NCBI GenBank assembly: GCA_026706165.1
Contig: JAPOZF010000098.1
Coordinates: 5,063 to 10,136 of the forward strand
DNA: 5,074 nucleotides
From: Gemmatimonadota bacterium
Lineage (GTDB): Bacteria; Latescibacterota; UBA2968; UBA8231
Direction of reading: 5' to 3'
Part shown: positions 1 through 5,063 of the stretch, one piece after another
Numbering within the stretch: position 1 is the stretch's first letter
Layout: every line of letters starts with the position of its first letter
Program-made: the position numbers and the translations under genes
The notes under the pieces: model-generated
Database searches by the model: none
Seen by the model: the letters and a program-made list of their open reading frames with translations, nothing else
Told to the model about the DNA's origin: nothing

Positions 1-419
1 GCGACGGTGACGACGTTCCCCGACTGCTGCGGGATCATCGCCCGGCGGACCACCTCCCGGGTGGTGAAGAAGACGCCGTTCAGCAGGACGTCGATCTGGC
101 GGCGCCAGTCCTCCTCGGGAAACTCCTCGGACCGGTGGGCGGTGAAGATGCCGGCGCTGTTGACGAGGATGTCGATGCGCCCGTGTTCGTCCAGCACCGC
201 GTCGACCAGGGCGGAGCAGGACTCCGGCCGGCTGACGTCGAGCTGTATCGCCCGGGCGCGGTACCCCTCCCCCCGCAGGCCCGCGGCCGCCTCTTCCCCG
301 CGGTCCGGGACCAACTCGCCGATGACCACCCGCGCCCCCTCGCCGGCCAGGGCGCGGGCGACGCCGAGTCCTATCCCCTGGCCGGCGCCGGTGACGACGG
401 CTGTCTGGTCCTCGAGCAT
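1..419 (-). CDS. Short-chain dehydrogenase/reductase (SDR), N-terminal part, truncated by window edge
   Basis: This is the first 139 codons of a classical SDR, an NAD(P)-dependent cytosolic oxidoreductase. Translation from ATG at 419-417 begins MLEDQTAVVTGAGQGIGLGV. Visible motifs are the cofactor glycine motif TGAGQGIG (residues 10-17), LDV (60-62, adenine-binding Asp), NSAG (87-90, the NNAG position) and Asn114 in LLNGVFF, the Asn of the N-S-Y-K catalytic tetrad. The frame leaves the window at NVVTV, just before the expected catalytic Ser; the Ser and YxxxK lie outside. Glu35 near the end of the second beta strand hints at NAD(H) over NADP(H), a weak inference. The substrate cannot be told. 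The start lies 10 nt after the stop of the DUF5069 gene and has no good Shine-Dalgarno (only GAG 9 nt upstream), so translational coupling is likely. There is no sign of damage in the visible part. Confidence 0.93.
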   Translation of the reverse strand, partial: MLEDQTAVVTGAGQGIGLGVARALAGEGARVVIGELVPDRGEEAAAGLRGEGYRARAIQLDVSRPESCSALVDAVLDEHGRIDILVNSAGIFTAHRSEEFPEEDWRRQIDVLLNGVFFTTREVVRRAMIPQQSGNVVTV

Positions 420-429
420 GACGGGCGGC

Positions 430-708
430 TCAGGGGCCCTTAACGGTCCGGTCCCCGAGGTGTTCCTTCATTCTGGAGATCAGCTCGTCGTCGTCGGCGC
501 TCGCCAGCACCATCTCCGAGAACTCCTCCGACTTCAGCTCCGCTTCCTCCAGGAAGCGCTGGTCGGCCGGTCACGGGAAGATGTAGTCGCCGATGCGCCC
601 GGCCTGCCAGGCGCGCGCCTTGTCCGCAATGCGGGCGAGCCAGGGAATGCCGCCGATCACGAGTCCGCGGGCCCGGGGTTTGAAGTCGAGGTTGTCCGAT
701 TCGCTCAT
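430..708 (-). CDS. DUF5069-family selenoprotein candidate (in-frame UGA read as Sec, 92 aa)
   Basis: Translation starts at ATG 708-706, preceded by AGGAG 8 nt upstream, and begins MSESDNLDFKPRARGLVIGG. Residues 16-45 include W-L-A-R-I-A-D-K-A-R-A, then G-x-I-G-D-Y-I-F-P, which match the DUF5069 pattern (L-P-R-x-x-D-K-x-R-A ... G-E-Y-x-[YF]-P-C-P-x-D-x-R/Q-F-L) as I know it. Codon 46 (573-571) is TGA, exactly where the family has its conserved Cys. The same frame then continues PADQRFLEEAELKSEEFSEM and onward for 46 codons to a TGA stop at 432-430. Of those 46 codons, 42 end in G or C, like the neighbouring genes, so the downstream part still looks translated. A SECIS-like hairpin lies at 558-541. 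The simplest reading is Sec insertion giving a complete protein; without it only a 45-residue stub is made. The family's biochemical function is unknown to me; Sec in place of Cys suggests a redox or nucleophilic role for that residue. The gene sits 57 nt after the kinase-like gene and 10 nt before the SDR. The alternative is a recent Cys-to-stop mutation or a sequencing error. Confidence 0.83.
541..558 (-). promoter_or_regulatory. Bacterial SECIS-like hairpin downstream of the UGA
   Basis: On the coding strand the sequence CGCTTCC-TGGA-GGAAGCG forms a perfect 7-bp stem with a 4-nt loop UGGA. The bottom can extend by CAG (561-559) pairing with CTG (537-535) across a 3-nt bulge. There are 19 nt between the UGA and the loop, and the second loop base is G. 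Bacterial SECIS elements recognised by SelB lie inside the coding region just after the UGA, with the loop roughly 16-37 nt away and a G in its first two positions, and this element fits. The SelB interaction itself is inferred. Confidence 0.75.
571..573 (-). other. Probable selenocysteine codon (in-frame UGA)
   Basis: TGA is codon 46 of the DUF5069 frame. It is flanked by proline codons (F-P-U-P-A-D) and replaces the family's conserved Cys of the C-P motif. TGC or TGT to TGA is a single-base difference, as expected for Cys/Sec exchange. Identity as Sec is inferred from alignment to the remembered family pattern, the intact downstream frame and the hairpin that follows. Confidence 0.8.
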
Positions 709-716
709 GGTTGTTG

Positions 717-721
717 CTCCT
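717..721 (-). promoter_or_regulatory. Shine-Dalgarno of the DUF5069 selenoprotein gene
   Basis: AGGAG lies 8 nt before the ATG at 708-706. It is the strongest ribosome-binding site in this part of the window and fixes the start used for the DUF5069 frame. That shows the short frame is meant to be translated despite its internal TGA. Confidence 0.7.
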
Positions 722-765: not shown

Positions 766-1818
766 TCACTTGCTTCCGGCATCGACCCGGCCGGGTTCCG
801 AATCCCGCATCCTCACAATCCATTCAGGGGAGAGGAGACGGGCGAACTGCCTCCTCAAGCCCGTGGTCATGGTATCGTCCCCGAGGGGGGCGGCGACCGC
901 GGCGCAGAGCTGGCCCAGCCGCAGGTCCGGCTGCCGCCATGCCTTCAGAAGCGCCCGGTGCGGCTCGGGCCCGGGGCGGTCGAGGGCCCCGCAGAGCCTG
1001 GCCGCGGCGTTCAGGTGGAAGAGGATGTGGTGGCCGTCGAGGGCGAACGCCCTGCGGGCCCGGTCTCCCGGGGCCGCGCGCGCGTACCGGCCGGCCGCGG
1101 TGCGGTCGAGGAGGCCGGCGAAGCCGCCCAGGGCGCCCGCCCCCAAACCGGTGGCGTACTGAACAAGGCGGCGCTCCGGCCAGTCCCAGCCGATCTTGGC
1201 GAACTCGATGAAGCTGACGGAGCCGCTGCCGGGGTCGACGACGACGTTGCGGGCGTTGTAGTCGGTGCTGCCGAGGCTCGGTTCCTCACCGGCGAGCCGG
1301 GAGCAGAGCTCGTCGAGCCGTTCCTCAAGCTCACGGAGAGCACTCCCGGAAGACGCCTGCCCCCAGCGCCCCAGGAGCCCGTGAAGGCCGTTCCGGCCGC
1401 CGGCGCGGGCCTGGTCGAGGGCGGCAGGCAGCCGGTCTCGTGGGGCCGCGGGTGAGACGTGGGGCTCCAGCTCTTGCCGGCATTCGGCGAAGGCCTGCTC
1501 GAGCTGCAGGAATCCGCTGACGAGCCGCTCCCGCAACCGCTGGAGGCGCTCCCGACCCGAGCATCGGACGGCGTCGTCCAGGGTCTCGTCTCCGACGTGC
1601 TCGAAGAAGATGATGCCCGCCGACGGATCGGAGCCGATCACCCTGGGGACCGGGCATTTCCGTTCCCTCAGCAGGTAGAGAACCCGCTGTTCCACGGCGA
1701 GCAGGTCGTCGGCCCGGCCCCGGGTGAGGCCGGCGAAGGGCTGGCGCTTGGCGACGGCGCGGCGGCCGCCGTCGAGGTCGAGCCTCCAGACCCCGGCTGC
1801 CAGTTCGGTCGCGGTCAC
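766..1818 (-). CDS. Aminoglycoside phosphotransferase (APH)/kinase-fold protein with altered catalytic motifs
   Basis: This is a 350-residue protein of the APH/choline-kinase type. The start chosen is GTG at 1818-1816, because it overlaps the lectin stop as GTGA, is preceded by GGGGAAGA, and the protein then begins VTATELAAGVWRLDL. An upstream in-frame ATG at 2304 would run through the lectin gene in another frame and is rejected. Kinase features: Lys24 in RRAVAKRQ (ATP lysine), a likely helix Glu43, a hinge-like region IIFFEHVGDETL (69-80), a catalytic-loop equivalent GSTDYNARNVVVD (183-195) with Asp186 and Asn191, and FIEFAKIGWDW (203-213). Two positions are unusual: the usual His of HxDxxxxN is Ser184, and the metal-binding Asp of the IDFE/DFG-like motif is Glu205. 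It may phosphorylate a small molecule such as a sugar, amino alcohol or lipid precursor, or be a degenerate kinase. I cannot name the substrate; there is no specific reason to call it an antibiotic-resistance enzyme. It sits between the lectin-like gene and the DUF5069 gene. Confidence 0.82.
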   Translation of the reverse strand: MTATELAAGVWRLDLDGGRRAVAKRQPFAGLTRGRADDLLAVEQRVLYLLRERKCPVPRVIGSDPSAGIIFFEHVGDETLDDAVRCSGRERLQRLRERLVSGFLQLEQAFAECRQELEPHVSPAAPRDRLPAALDQARAGGRNGLHGLLGRWGQASSGSALRELEERLDELCSRLAGEEPSLGSTDYNARNVVVDPGSGSVSFIEFAKIGWDWPERRLVQYATGLGAGALGGFAGLLDRTAAGRYARAAPGDRARRAFALDGHHILFHLNAAARLCGALDRPGPEPHRALLKAWRQPDLRLGQLCAAVAAPLGDDTMTTGLRRQFARLLSPEWIVRMRDSEPGRVDAGSK

Positions 1819-2192
1819 TCTTCCCCGAACAGGATGATCTGGGAGGAGAGCTTGCCGGCCTGGTTGTTGTGTTCGGGGTTCTCGTTCATCGCCAGGTGGA
1901 GCAGTCCGTCCCGGTCGCAGAGGAAGTCGTGGCGGCTGCCGACGGCGAAGGGCGGGCCGTCGTCGCCGACGCGGGCGATCAGCATGCCGACGTTGGCCCC
2001 GGGCAGCAGGTACCCCTCCCCGGCCGGGAGGTTGTACACCCCGTCGGCCCCGCACCAAGCGATCTGGTTGCGCATGTCCGGCGACCAGACCTCCTCGGTG
2101 TCGATCACCACCCGCTGTCCCCGCCGCAGGCGGATCAGGGTATCCTGCCATTCGGGGCTGGGGCGGACGGTGCGGATGACGGTCAGTGCCAT
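1815..2192 (-). CDS. LecA (PA-I galactophilic lectin)-like domain protein
   Basis: This is a 125-residue single-domain protein starting MALTVIRTVRPSPEWQDTLI. The start at 2192 is supported by AGGA 6 nt upstream (AGGAAGG at 2202-2196); further in-frame upstream sequence to 2405 is low-complexity and looks non-coding. The C-terminal half resembles the Pseudomonas PA-IL/LecA fold: GMLIARVGDDGPPFAVGS (69-86) parallels the LecA strand G-A-L-V-M-K-I-G, and LAMNENPEHNNQAGKL (100-115) parallels the LecA calcium/galactose loop Y-N-D ... N-N-S-G, with Glu104, Asn109 and Asn110 in ligand-like positions. The loop is about two residues shorter than in LecA. The likely role is calcium-dependent carbohydrate binding or a related beta-sandwich role. 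There is no signal peptide, so it is cytoplasmic or exported by another route, as LecA is. Its stop overlaps the kinase-like start. The assignment rests on motif memory, not a search; sugar specificity is unknown. Confidence 0.68.
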   Translation of the reverse strand: MALTVIRTVRPSPEWQDTLIRLRRGQRVVIDTEEVWSPDMRNQIAWCGADGVYNLPAGEGYLLPGANVGMLIARVGDDGPPFAVGSRHDFLCDRDGLLHLAMNENPEHNNQAGKLSSQIILFGEE

Positions 2193-2440: not shown

Positions 2441-2872
2441 TCAGTGCCGGATCAGGGCCAGGGCCTGAAGGCCGCCGGGAACTCGTGAGGGATCGATGTG
2501 GGAATCCAGAGTGGCGAAACGGCCGCCGCGATGTACGGCGAGGGCCAGCAGGTAGGCGTCGGTCAGCTGCTTCGAGGTGATGCCCTGAAGTGACGGCAGC
2601 GTGCGACTGTCGGCCACGGAGATGCTGTCCTCCCAGAACAGGTGCCCCGGTACGGAACGCAGGCGCTGGAGCAGAGGCCGGACCTTTTCAGGCGACCCGG
2701 GCCCTCCCGGGTACCCGGGGTGACCCATGACCCGCAGCAATCCGTTCTCAGTCAGTGGGCAGGTTACCCAGCCTTCAGCCCGGTATGCGCGGAACCACTG
2801 CGCTGCCGGGCGATGGTGGACGTGATCGGCGTCGCAGAGCGCGACGAGGGGATTCACGTCCAGCAGGTTCAC
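2441..2872 (-). CDS. vapC: VapC-type PIN-domain ribonuclease toxin
   Basis: This is a 143-residue PIN-domain protein, near the usual VapC length. It starts with GTG at 2872-2870 (NLLDVNPLVALCDADHVHH after the initiator) and overlaps the antitoxin stop as GTGA. The four acidic metal-binding residues of PIN nucleases can be placed: Asp5 in LLDVN, Glu42 in PLTENGLLR, Asp105 in QLTDAYLLALA and Asp123 in FATLDSHID. The family cleaves RNA (tRNAs or rRNA in studied members) using Mg2+, and is held inactive by its cognate antitoxin. The insert around residues 50-60 is rich in Gly and Pro (HPGYPGGPGSP), as in a PIN subgroup I know from other VapC-like proteins. All catalytic residues are present, so it should be active. 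The RNA target is unknown. Confidence 0.9.
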   Translation of the reverse strand: MNLLDVNPLVALCDADHVHHRPAAQWFRAYRAEGWVTCPLTENGLLRVMGHPGYPGGPGSPEKVRPLLQRLRSVPGHLFWEDSISVADSRTLPSLQGITSKQLTDAYLLALAVHRGGRFATLDSHIDPSRVPGGLQALALIRH

Positions 2873-3108
2873 CCGGTCTCCTCATCCAGAAGCCTCCCGA
2901 CGATTTCCGCGGTAACGCGGGCACCCCGGGAAGGAAGGTGGGGCAAACCGTCATCGTCCACCTCGAAGAGAACCGGCGTTGAAGCGCCGTGGTGAACCTC
3001 TCGTTCGAGAGCGTGGGTGATTATGGCCTTCAGAGTGGTGCCGCGGCGGGCTGCCATGGCCTTCGCCGCACGCAGGAGGGCATCGGGAAGCTCGATGGTC
3101 GTCTTCAT
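2869..3108 (-). CDS. vapB: VapB-type ribbon-helix-helix antitoxin
   Basis: This is a 79-residue antitoxin starting MKTTIELPDALLRAAKAMAA. Residues 1-40 have the ribbon-helix-helix DNA-binding pattern: beta strand KTTIELPD, helix LLRAAKAMAARRG, then TTLKAIITHALEREV. The acidic/hydrophobic C-terminal half (about 45-79, ending IVGRLLDEETG) is the expected toxin-wrapping segment. It overlaps the toxin by four bases (GTGA), typical of co-translated toxin-antitoxin pairs. RHH antitoxins usually repress their own promoter, and direct repeats lie in the adjacent upstream region. ATG at 3108-3106 is the only good start for the RHH fold; it lacks a Shine-Dalgarno. Confidence 0.9.
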   Translation of the reverse strand: MKTTIELPDALLRAAKAMAARRGTTLKAIITHALEREVHHGASTPVLFEVDDDGLPHLPSRGARVTAEIVGRLLDEETG

Positions 3109-3269: not shown

Positions 3270-4304
3270 TCAGTCGGAGTCCGTGACGACGTTGTGCCTG
3301 GCCCGGCGCTTCTCCCGCATCGCCGCGTGGGCATCGGGGGAGCCGTCGTGGCTGGTGCCGAACCAGTGGTCGAACGGGAAGTCGGGCTCGCCGTAGTTGC
3401 ACTCGAAGTAGCGGTGGTGGAGCTGGTGGAAGTAGGAGCCTGCGGCGACCCCGGCGTCCCCCTTCAGCAGCAGCTTCTCGAAGCCGACGTGGCCCTGGGC
3501 CGGTGTGAAGGCGGCGTGCTGCCCGTTGAGCACCATGTGTATGGGGTGGGACGGCACGACCCAGTGAACGAGCATGCAGCTGAAGTAGAGGACGTGCTCG
3601 AGCGGGTGCATTGCCAGCCCGGACCAGGGGCCGACGTTGATGTTCCTGTGGTGGAGGTAGTGGCCCGCCCTGTAGAGCGGCGGCCAGTGCAGGAGGCGGT
3701 GGACCCAGTAGAAGTGGAAGAGGCGCCAGAGCTGGATGCCGCAGAGCCAGGCGGCGAAGTACAGCGGCTGCTGCCGCGGGTCGACGTAGGGCAGCATGCC
3801 GTTGGCGTAAGCCCAGGTCATCAGCACCTCGTACGCGGTCCAGACCGTGCAGCCGCTGGCGCAGCTCCAGAAGATGTTGTCGCGGAGCTGGCTCCCCCCG
3901 AGGAACTTGCGCTTTCCCGTCGCCATCCAGTCCGAGGTGTACTTGTAGCGGAGGCCCTGGGACTTCCGGGTCCACAGCGGCAGGTGCCAGGCGCTGACGA
4001 CGACGATCAGCATCAGCTGGTTGCGCGCGAACATCTCGAGGATCCAGTCGGCCCGGAACTCGACGCAGCGGGAAAGGGCCGGCTGGAAGTGGAGCCAGGT
4101 AAGGGCGGCGATCCCCATGTAGAGGAGGTTCCAGGGGTACAGGTACCCCGGGAAGCCGAACAGCCACTTGAGCGCCGGGCCCGGTTTCAGCGGCCAGGAG
4201 AACCAGGGATTGGCCGGCGCCGTGCCCCGCTTCGGCTGCCAGAACCCGCGGGCGTCGCGGGGCATGCCGTCGATCGGTTGCCGTTGCCTCGGGGTATCCG
4301 TCAT
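3270..4304 (-). CDS. Fatty acid hydroxylase / sterol desaturase-family membrane di-iron protein
   Basis: This 344-residue integral membrane protein starts MTDTPRQRQPIDGMPRDARG. It carries the histidine clusters of the fatty acid hydroxylase superfamily: HRLLH (202-206, HX3H), HYLHH (215-219, HX2HH) and HQLHH (293-297, HX2HH), plus HPLEH (233-237). These bind the two irons that activate O2 for C-H hydroxylation or desaturation of lipids, sterols or carotenoids. Hydrophobic stretches that could span the membrane lie near 52-72, 93-110, 150-168, 181-200 and 238-256. The N-terminal 40 residues are polar and Pro-rich. The start lies 42 nt after the stop of the dioxygenase-like gene, so both are probably cotranscribed; the Shine-Dalgarno is weak. 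The substrate cannot be read from sequence. All metal ligands are present, so it should be functional. Confidence 0.9.
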   Translation of the reverse strand: MTDTPRQRQPIDGMPRDARGFWQPKRGTAPANPWFSWPLKPGPALKWLFGFPGYLYPWNLLYMGIAALTWLHFQPALSRCVEFRADWILEMFARNQLMLIVVVSAWHLPLWTRKSQGLRYKYTSDWMATGKRKFLGGSQLRDNIFWSCASGCTVWTAYEVLMTWAYANGMLPYVDPRQQPLYFAAWLCGIQLWRLFHFYWVHRLLHWPPLYRAGHYLHHRNINVGPWSGLAMHPLEHVLYFSCMLVHWVVPSHPIHMVLNGQHAAFTPAQGHVGFEKLLLKGDAGVAAGSYFHQLHHRYFECNYGEPDFPFDHWFGTSHDGSPDAHAAMREKRRARHNVVTDSD

Positions 4305-4346: not shown

Positions 4347-5063
4347 TCAGACCTTCTGCAGCGACGCCCAGCGGTCGTAGTAGAGGTGAATGGACTCGGG
4401 CAGGAACTCGCGCGCCCCCGGGTTCAGCATGAAGGCGCACCGGCCCGGCTCCGACTTTTCCTCCTCCTCGTCGAAAACCTGAAAGCTGGTGGAGATGGTC
4501 AGCCTTTCCCGCCCCGGGGTGGCCGCGGAGCGGTGCAGGCAGTCGCCGTTCCAGAAGATCGTCTGCCCCGCCTTGAGGTCGACGACCATGTCTCCGGGCA
4601 GCCTCTCGTGGAGGCTGTCACGCATCGCCGCGTACTCCTCCCCGGTGCGGAAGCGGCGGTGGCTGCCGGGAATCAGCGAAAGCGCGATGTCGTCGACCAT
4701 CGCCATCTCCCAGCGGCAGCCGCGCCGGGGCTGGCGCAGGTACTCCATCTCCTCTTCTTCGCCGCGGTCCATCACCAGGCCGTCGTCGCGGTGCCAGCGG
4801 ATGTTGAACGGCTCGTTCTCCGGATTGGTGAACATCGCCATCGGACCGATGCGGATACCGGTGCCGATCTGCCCGTGCACGTAGTCGAGCAGGGCCCGGC
4901 AACCGTAGTATTCGGCGAAGACGGGTTCGCCGAACTCCGGGGCGTTCAACCCGACGATGTGGTAGGGCTCCCCGTCGCCGTGGAAATCGCTGTAGAGGTC
5001 GACCTCGCCGGCGCGGACCTTCTGCCTGATTCTCCGCGCCGCGACGCGCATCTCCCCGGTCAT
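4347..5063 (-). CDS. Phytanoyl-CoA dioxygenase (PhyH)-like Fe(II)/2-oxoglutarate oxygenase
   Basis: This protein has the PhyH-type jelly-roll signature: iron-binding HxD as WHRDD (His91, Asp93), the IPGSHRR motif (131-137) and distal His177 in NGDCLHRSA, followed 10 residues later by Arg187, the 2-oxoglutarate anchor. Such enzymes couple 2-oxoglutarate decarboxylation to hydroxylation of a small molecule or lipid-like substrate; acyl-CoA is not implied by the family name. ATG at 5063 has AGGA 7 nt upstream at the very edge of the window. The frame stays open to the edge, and only 90 residues precede HxD, somewhat short for the family, so the true start may lie outside and the gene may be partial. 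An acidic patch (DEEEEKSE) lies near the C-terminus. It is followed after 42 nt by the membrane hydroxylase, suggesting two oxygenases acting on related substrates. Confidence 0.86.
   Translation of the reverse strand: MTGEMRVAARRIRQKVRAGEVDLYSDFHGDGEPYHIVGLNAPEFGEPVFAEYYGCRALLDYVHGQIGTGIRIGPMAMFTNPENEPFNIRWHRDDGLVMDRGEEEEMEYLRQPRRGCRWEMAMVDDIALSLIPGSHRRFRTGEEYAAMRDSLHERLPGDMVVDLKAGQTIFWNGDCLHRSAATPGRERLTISTSFQVFDEEEEKSEPGRCAFMLNPGAREFLPESIHLYYDRWASLQKV

What the first reader, a model, noticed from the sequence alone, without database searches (positions are those of the whole stretch)
430..708. DUF5069-family protein with UGA at the conserved Cys: probable selenoprotein
Seen directly: a good Shine-Dalgarno and ATG, 45 sense codons, one TGA, then 46 codons in the same frame with 42 of 46 ending in G or C, then a stop. 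The residues on both sides (GDYIFP before, PADQRFLEEA after) form one continuous DUF5069 motif, and the TGA falls on its conserved Cys. Established: Cys/Sec exchange at a reactive position is the hallmark of selenoproteins. I do not recall DUF5069 as an established selenoprotein family, so this may be a new or little-described one. Standard gene callers would lose it or call it a pseudogene.
Basis: partly seen in the sequence, partly recalled or inferred. Interest (0 to 1): 0.93.

Follow-up and report, generated by a model that had tools for sequence, protein, structure and literature searches.

The report
Overlooked selenoprotein family in uncultured bacteria
A small bacterial gene of unknown function has a UGA "stop" codon exactly where its relatives have cysteine, followed by an RNA hairpin conserved across two groups of uncultured bacteria, and it is therefore predicted to be read through with the rare amino acid selenocysteine, which would make it a selenoprotein family that public databases cut short.

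Summary
Confirmed and extended. On the minus strand (708 to 430) lies a 92-codon DUF5069 gene (Pfam E 3e-16) with TGA at codon 46. All 65 full-length homologues found have Cys there. Two phylum surveys that read through stops find the same small protein in 43 of 64 Latescibacterota-type genomes (36 TGA, 7 Cys) and 77 of 84 Poribacteria-type genomes (71 TGA, 6 Cys). Each TGA form read carries a hairpin with loop UGGA, 19 nt after UGA (22 in one), as the published bacterial SECIS model asks. Its outer stem pairs covary; in 109 distinct genes the codons over it show no synonymous variation. None of 12 Cys forms compared has the 12-base core. SelA, SelB, SelD and tRNA-Sec track the TGA form in the first phylum, and SelD itself carries an in-frame TGA in 35 of 36 such genomes. 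TGA is the normal stop of six other window genes. No DUF5069 selenoprotein appears in the searched literature, in a 2026 catalogue of 119 families, or in NCBIfam. Very probably a new, widespread selenoprotein family. Its chemistry is unknown; there is no experiment, and the window's own genome is not held. A metagenome family of 2008 (GOS_A), whose sequence I could not see, might be the same.

The parts
430..708 (-). DUF5069 gene, 92 codons plus stop, with in-frame TGA at codon 46
   Evidence: PF16798 E 3.1e-16 across the TGA
571..573 (-). TGA codon 46, predicted selenocysteine codon
   Evidence: Cys in 65 of 65 full-length homologues; TGA at the same codon in 107 genomes
541..558 (-). Predicted bacterial SECIS hairpin: 7-bp stem CGCUUCC/GGAAGCG with loop UGGA; loop at 548-551
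   Evidence: loop UGGA in 96 of 96 distinct TGA segments, outer pairs covary; core absent from 12 of 12 Cys forms
544..555 (-). TTCCTGGAGGAA core, codons +6 to +9 after the TGA; exact in 93 of 96 distinct TGA segments; no synonymous variation in 109 distinct genes
717..721 (-). Shine-Dalgarno AGGAG
   Evidence: Read from the sequence
430..432 (-). Terminating TGA of the DUF5069 gene
766..1818 (-). APH-like gene directly upstream, same strand; homologues upstream of the small DUF5069 gene in 19 other loci of 62 compared
   Evidence: (PF01636 22.0 bits, just under cut-off 23.2)
1815..2192 (-). 125-aa gene without Pfam match, overlapping the APH-like gene; homologues in 18 other loci of 62 compared
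3..419 (-). Short-chain dehydrogenase gene starting at 419, shortly after the DUF5069 stop; runs off the window
   Evidence: PF00106 E 4.9e-34

Best explanation
The gene at 708-430 (minus strand) is a DUF5069 gene whose in-frame UGA at codon 46 stands where Cys-form relatives have cysteine and is followed by a conserved hairpin, and this UGA is predicted to be decoded as selenocysteine by SelB and tRNA-Sec instead of ending translation. Shown: the UGA and its recurrence, the Cys/UGA exchange, the hairpin with covarying outer pairs and synonymous constraint, the companion sel genes in relatives, and use of TGA as the stop of neighbouring genes. Inferred: that SelB binds the hairpin and that the 92-residue selenoprotein is made. 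Inferred further: the selenolate at position 46, placed directly before a helix in the predicted fold and without a Cys elsewhere in the protein, would act as a single nucleophilic or redox centre that needs an external partner for recycling.
For: Cys at codon 46 in 65 of 65 full-length homologues (invariant in the 54-row alignment). TGA at that codon in 36 of 64 genomes of the phylum of G001 and 71 of 84 of the phylum of G002, in searches that read through stops (codons read). Hairpin: loop UGGA in 96 of 96 distinct segments; pair 18-31 is G-C in 81 and C-G in 15; 91.8% of cells paired against 79.3% in shuffles; 66 double changes against 23.9. No synonymous variation at codons +6 to +9 in 109 distinct genes: TTC 109 of 109, CTG 109 of 109, GAG 108 of 108, GAA 106 of 106, expected entropies 0.99 to 2.40 bits. 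Spacing and loop fit the bSECIS model as stated in PMC13188914 (passage). SelB, SelA and SelD over cut-off in 35, 35 and 36 of 36 TGA genomes of the first phylum and tRNA-Sec above 60 bits in 34 of 36; Fisher p 1.3e-8, 5.5e-8 and 2.5e-8 against the other 28 genomes for SelB, SelA and tRNA-Sec. SelD carries an in-frame TGA in 35 of these 36; it lies at UxxK in 5 of 5 TGA forms read, four of them from Sec-DUF5069 genomes. tRNA-Sec anticodon tca in 10 of 10 loci tested. Six of six other window genes checked end in TGA.
Against: No experiment. The window's own genome is not held, so its sel genes are untested. Four of 71 TGA genomes of the second phylum show no SelB at E<=1e-60 (G091, G094, G097, G125), and 2 of 36 of the first show no tRNA-Sec at E<=1e-8 (G052, G068); these may be gaps in draft genomes. 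G010 (L011) has the TGA gene but no SelB over cut-off, and its best tRNA-Sec match, 47.0 bits, only just reaches the gathering score of 47. Six of 7 and 5 of 6 Cys-form genomes also have SelB, so the machinery does not dictate the form. Two of the five covariation measures do not exceed their shuffles (pairs with a change on both sides 3 against 2.9; further pair types 7 against 8.0). One Cys form, L079, keeps the 7-bp stem with another loop (UACA), and one, L131, keeps the bases TTCCTGGAG without the stem. For the window alone only the 50-nt fold stands out (z -2.42), not the 40-, 60- or 77-nt folds (z -0.79, -0.62, -0.32). Rfam has no match.
Confidence: 0.94

Rival explanations
1. The TGA is a mutation or sequencing error in a decaying or Cys-coding gene.
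For: A single in-frame stop in a small gene is the usual mark of either (recalled).
Against: The same TGA at the same codon in 107 genomes of two phyla, an open frame behind it, and no synonymous change in the hairpin codons across 109 distinct genes.
Confidence: 0.01
2. The UGA is a real stop and a short protein of about 41 to 45 residues is the main product; the hairpin regulates termination or frequent read-through.
For: Public annotation holds short forms: 29 of 30 hits of the window's N-half and 16 of 16 of the Poribacteria N-half end just before the site. UGA termination competes with Sec insertion in general (recalled).
Against: The C-terminal half is conserved in both forms: D49 and F63 are invariant among the Cys forms aligned and in 109 of 109 distinct TGA genes (positions +3 and +17), and it lies in the fold shared with 3OMD. 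In the 107 TGA and 13 Cys genomes read, the codon is TGA or Cys and no other stop. sel genes accompany the TGA form.
Confidence: 0.04
3. UGA is decoded as Cys or another residue by a special tRNA, without selenium.
For: The aligned residue is Cys, and unusual UGA-reading tRNAs are known (recalled).
Against: A bSECIS-like hairpin would not be needed. tRNA-Sec with anticodon tca, SelA, SelB and a TGA-form SelD accompany it. The genomes were not searched for other UGA-reading tRNAs.
Confidence: 0.03
4. The organism uses a variant code in which TGA is generally a sense codon.
For: An in-frame TGA within a conserved gene.
Against: Six of six other window genes checked, and this gene too, end in TGA. 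In the relatives the over-cut-off SelB and SelA matches contain no stop inside.
Confidence: 0.01

Closest known systems
DUF5069 (Pfam PF16798), Cys forms; solved structure 3OMD of Leptospirillum rubarum
   Different: Codon 46 is UGA with a hairpin behind it; no Sec form was found described.
Bacterial selenoproteins with one Sec opposite Cys homologues (more than 110 families, PMC13188914)
   Same: UGA/Cys exchange, bSECIS-type hairpin directly downstream, sel genes in the genomes of relatives.
   Different: No CxxU, UxxC or UxxT motif, no other Cys in the window protein, and a mainly helical model, whereas the review says that most characterized selenoproteins have a Trx-like fold (PMC13188914).
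TGA-form selenophosphate synthetase (SelD, TIGR00476)
   Same: The same genomes carry it with TGA at UxxK, so both are predicted to use the same decoding apparatus.
   Different: A different protein family; the UUCCUGGAGGAA core is absent from the five TGA-form SelD loci read.
Hypothetical protein GOS_A (2008 ocean survey, 2 Sec sequences, 155 Cys homologues)
   Same: A predicted marine selenoprotein family listed without a conserved domain (PMC2398784, passages).
   Different: Its sequence could not be seen here, so identity with this family is neither shown nor excluded.

Membership tests
Bacterial selenoprotein gene | In-frame UGA aligned with Cys of homologues, conserved on both sides | tested here: met
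   65 of 65 full-length homologues have Cys; 107 genomes have TGA
Bacterial selenoprotein gene | bSECIS: small apical loop with G in its first two positions, 16-37 nt after UGA | tested here: met
   Loop UGGA, 19 nt after UGA, in 96 of 96 distinct segments; outer pairs covary; model as stated in PMC13188914
Bacterial selenoprotein gene | selA, selB, selC and selD in the genome | tested here: inconclusive
   Met in relatives; the window's own genome is not held
Bacterial selenoprotein gene | Selenium present at the site in the protein | not testable with these tools
   Needs 75Se labelling or mass spectrometry
DUF5069 (PF16798) | Score above the curated cut-off | tested here: met
   60.2 bits against 27
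DUF5069 (PF16798) | Fold of the solved relative 3OMD | tested here: met
Thioredoxin-like UxxC/CxxU selenoproteins | CxxU or UxxC motif | tested here: not met
   Site reads YIFP-U-PADQ; no other Cys in the window protein
Families of the 2026 selenoprotein catalogue | Listed under PF16798 or DUF5069, or hit by an NCBIfam model | tested here: not met
   0 occurrences of either name in the main text; no NCBIfam match at E<=0.001

The most novel reading that the evidence does not exclude
Sec-DUF5069 is a core selenoenzyme of two candidate phyla, near-universal in Poribacteria and common in Latescibacterota, with chemistry outside the thioredoxin-like world: a mainly helical protein with one lone selenolate at a helix start and no resolving Cys, whose UGA and UUCCUGGAGGAA SECIS core either date to a common ancestor or were exchanged between the phyla.
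Probability: 0.4. Interest if true: 0.85.

Novelty: new member of a known kind. Interest (0 to 1): 0.72.

Why it matters
A conserved protein of unknown function gains a testable active site: selenocysteine is predicted at one residue in over 100 genomes, which marks that residue as chemically important wherever DUF5069 keeps the Cys. Public databases hold the gene cut off before that codon, so half of a phylum-wide protein is missing from those annotations. The nearly fixed 12-base core across two phyla gives a clean natural data set for SelB recognition, and the alternation of Sec and Cys (at least 2 changes forced on the tree) allows a test of why lineages keep selenium.

Tried and rejected
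Rfam over the window: no match up to E 1. Whole genome of the window: not held. Viral contigs: the TGA pattern gave 0 hits. Two of the 25 pattern hits (L003, L018, Halomonas) hold no DUF5069 motif, are taken as chance and were dropped. L107 was left out of the hairpin alignment and the codon count because one extra codon shifts its hairpin by 3 nt; the core itself is kept. L180 (G080) was missed by my first site expression and read later: Cys; it is not among the 12 Cys forms compared for the core. Folds of 40, 60 and 77 nt of the window alone gave no notable z. My first two scripts for reading the SelD site used poor patterns: one gave mostly unrelated frames, the next found one of six; a homology-based reading settled the other five. 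P0060 was left out of the tree input because of an insertion. My first translation of the region was on the wrong strand.

Function: Foldseek's only match with E<=0.001 and VIA's only row is 3OMD, itself of unknown function. Neighbour genes differ between lineages: an APH-like gene and a 125-aa gene upstream in 20 and 19 of 62 loci, an NAD-binding oxidoreductase downstream in 13 of 62, a prephenate dehydratase downstream in 14, Poribacteria-type. No single partner follows, so I did not build a pathway on them. Literature on 3OMD: only the first 5 of 59 papers were listed, and none of these looked relevant.

The tRNA-Sec gathering score of 47 also rings in 5 of 14 control genomes, so I counted only matches above 60 bits; that threshold is mine.

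Full report
What is there. The gene lies on the minus strand: ATG at 708-706, TGA at 573-571 as codon 46, 46 further codons and a stop TGA at 432-430. GC at third positions is 40 of 45 before and 42 of 46 after the TGA. Pfam finds DUF5069 across the TGA (residues 11-87, E 3.1e-16). A Shine-Dalgarno AGGAG lies at 721-717. The next gene, a short-chain dehydrogenase, starts at 419. Six of six other window genes checked end in TGA, so TGA does not look like a general sense codon here.

Homologues. A search of 5.8 billion proteins gave 69 hits; 65 are full length and all 65 have Cys at codon 46 (C46 is invariant in the 54-row alignment). Three of the other four end exactly before the site and one is frame-shifted. 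Searches with the N-half alone gave 30 and 16 proteins, of which 29 and 16 end just before the site; one is named a DUF5069 protein of Latescibacterota and one of Poribacteria by NCBI. Their stop codons are not seen in these protein records.

TGA forms in genomes. A pattern that demands the TGA found 25 loci in a collection of 84,980 species genomes; 23 are DUF5069 genes. Because the pattern demands the TGA, I then surveyed two phyla with protein queries that read through stops. In the phylum of G001 (titles of its loci name mostly Latescibacterota; some say Gemmatimonadota or Gemmatimonadetes), 47 of 64 genomes match at E<=0.001 and 43 hold the small protein at E<=3.2e-20: 36 with TGA at the site, 7 with TGC or TGT. 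In the phylum of G002 (titles: Poribacteria), 77 of 84 hold it: 71 with TGA and 6 with Cys. The phylum names are my reading of record titles; the tool gives none. Profile PF16798 rings in 0 of 14 control genomes.

The hairpin. Behind each TGA read stands a stem with loop UGGA. In 96 distinct 45-base segments (L107 left out for a one-codon insertion) the loop is UGGA in 96 of 96 and the exact core UUCCUGGAGGAA in 93; L074, L076 and L088 vary by one or two bases. Pair 18-31 is G-C in 81 and C-G in 15; pair 17-32 is U-A, A-U, G-U or G-C in 86 of 96; pair 16-33 holds in 52 of 96. Paired cells are 91.8% against 79.3% after shuffling, double changes 66 against 23.9 and covariation score 0.248 against 0.064, 0 of 500 shuffles as high; two other measures do not exceed the shuffles (pairs with double change 3 against 2.9, further pair types 7 against 8.0). 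Sliding the partner by 1 to 3 columns lowers pairing to 27-68%. The shuffles do not keep relatedness, but the G-C to C-G exchange at pair 18-31 separates lineages within one phylum. None of 12 Cys forms compared has the core; L079 keeps the stem with loop UACA and L131 keeps TTCCTGGAG without the stem. Seven of them, aligned, show no double change and 73.5% pairing against 74.2% in shuffles. Across 109 distinct genes, codons +6 to +9 are TTC (109 of 109), CTG (109 of 109), GAG (108 of 108) and GAA (106 of 106), counting the rows with the commonest amino acid, where codon usage in the rest of the same genes predicts entropies of 0.99 to 2.40 bits; F at +17, for example, is TTC in 59 and TTT in 50. 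Most other positions vary about as expected; exceptions are I at -7 (0.31 against 1.29) and, less so, P at -1 and +1 and A at +14. The core occurs once in the window, expected 0.00. For the window alone the 50-nt fold has z -2.42; the 40-, 60- and 77-nt folds are unremarkable. The bSECIS model, as stated in PMC13188914 (passages), asks for a G in the first two loop positions, 16-37 nt from UGA; here it is 19 nt.

Machinery. In the first phylum SelB is over cut-off in 35 of 36 TGA genomes (G015 only in a fragment), 6 of 7 Cys genomes and 3 of 21 without the small gene. SelA: 35 of 36 (G054 a fragment), 6 of 7, 4 of 21. tRNA-Sec above 60 bits: 34 of 36, 4 of 7, 4 of 21 (the gathering score of 47 also rings in 5 of 14 controls). 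SelD: 36 of 36, 6 of 7, 5 of 21. Fisher p for TGA genomes against the other 28 is 1.3e-8, 5.5e-8 and 2.5e-8 for SelB, SelA and tRNA-Sec. The SelD match holds an in-frame TGA in 35 of the 36 (G054 is a fragment without the N-terminus), and none in 5 of the 6 Cys-DUF5069 genomes that have SelD. Of six SelD loci read, five have TGA at UxxK (G001, G015, G041 and G065 from the Sec-DUF5069 set; G067 from the Cys set), and G058 of the Cys set has CAAK. The one Cys-DUF5069 genome of this phylum without SelB, SelA or SelD over cut-off is G063. In the second phylum SelB is over cut-off in 67 of 71 TGA genomes and 8 of 13 others, p 0.004. Among the 23 pattern genomes, SelB is over cut-off in 21 and tRNA-Sec at 68 bits or more in 22; the exceptions are G015 (SelB split) and G010, an Alphaproteobacteria-labelled draft whose DUF5069 gene resembles the Latescibacterota-type group and is probably mis-binned; its best tRNA-Sec match has 47.0 bits. 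ARAGORN reads anticodon tca in 10 of 10 tRNA-Sec loci fetched.

Evolution. A tree of 179 proteins (92 columns, so many forks are open; the site was written as C in Sec rows) needs 4 Sec/Cys changes, at least 2 forced by well-supported branches, against 57.8 in shuffles. The window groups with Sec forms L074, L076 and L088 (support 92/90, not starred). Its fatty acid hydroxylase has relatives in 16 of 64 genomes of the phylum of G001, the closest 65-71% identical, so the window probably comes from that phylum; this is inference.

Literature. No paper of the library holds DUF5069, alone or with selenoprotein, and none holds selenoprotein with Poribacteria. Two hold selenoprotein with Latescibacter: passages of PMC8318568 concern a deltaproteobacterium, and PMC10340089 was not opened. 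Selenocysteine with Poribacteria gives two papers, with Latescibacter three; passages of PMC5649159 and PMC9999580 were seen, and PMC12805115 was not opened. PMC5649159 notes that SelA and SelB co-occur in the majority of sponge-symbiont bins of various phyla, which agrees with selenium use in such symbionts; the passages of PMC9999580 have nothing on the subject. The 2026 catalogue PMC13188914 (119 families; section 7 part 1 of 3 read, main text searched) has no PF16798 or DUF5069. Passages of PMC9312934 and PMC12013277 name none either. NCBIfam of June 2026 has no match. PMC2398784 lists GOS_A, whose sequence I could not see (passages). Preprints and most subscription journals are not in the library.

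Verdict. The finding is right and larger than stated: very probably a new selenoprotein family that is common in two phyla and truncated in public annotation.

Noticed in passing
window 2441-2872 and 2869-3108 (-): VapC-like PIN gene (TIGR00028, 105.1 bits over cut-off 73.6) overlapped by a 79-aa gene without Pfam match: likely a toxin-antitoxin pair.
   Followed up: no
window 766-1818 and 1815-2192 (-): APH-like gene and a conserved 125-aa protein without Pfam match (63-79% identical among 18 other loci), conserved upstream of Sec and Cys forms of the small DUF5069 gene in 20 and 19 of 62 loci.
   Followed up: partly
L006, L008, L010, L011, L014, L016, L017, L021, L069, L071, L078, L084, L085: NAD-binding oxidoreductase (PF00175, tested on the L071 copy) directly downstream of the small DUF5069 gene in 13 of 62 loci; in the window a short-chain dehydrogenase stands there.
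   Followed up: partly
L044, L048, L053, L062: Proteins of 295-457 residues with DUF5069 domains in tandem; a CPxD motif stands in one domain of L044 and L048 and in none of L053 and L062, where DSGLD or DSSQD-type sequences stand instead.
   Followed up: no
L011 (G010): TGA-form DUF5069 contig in a draft labelled Alphaproteobacteria without SelB over cut-off and with only a 47.0-bit tRNA-Sec match: probably mis-binned.
   Followed up: partly
L107: A natural one-codon insertion between UGA and hairpin shifts the hairpin by 3 nt but leaves its core intact.
   Followed up: no
G046: Two tRNA-Sec matches with equal score on different contigs.
   Followed up: no
window 3270-4304 and 4347-5063 (-): Fatty acid hydroxylase (PF04116) and phytanoyl-CoA dioxygenase-like (PF05721) genes; the first has relatives up to 71% identical in the phylum of G001.
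   Followed up: partly
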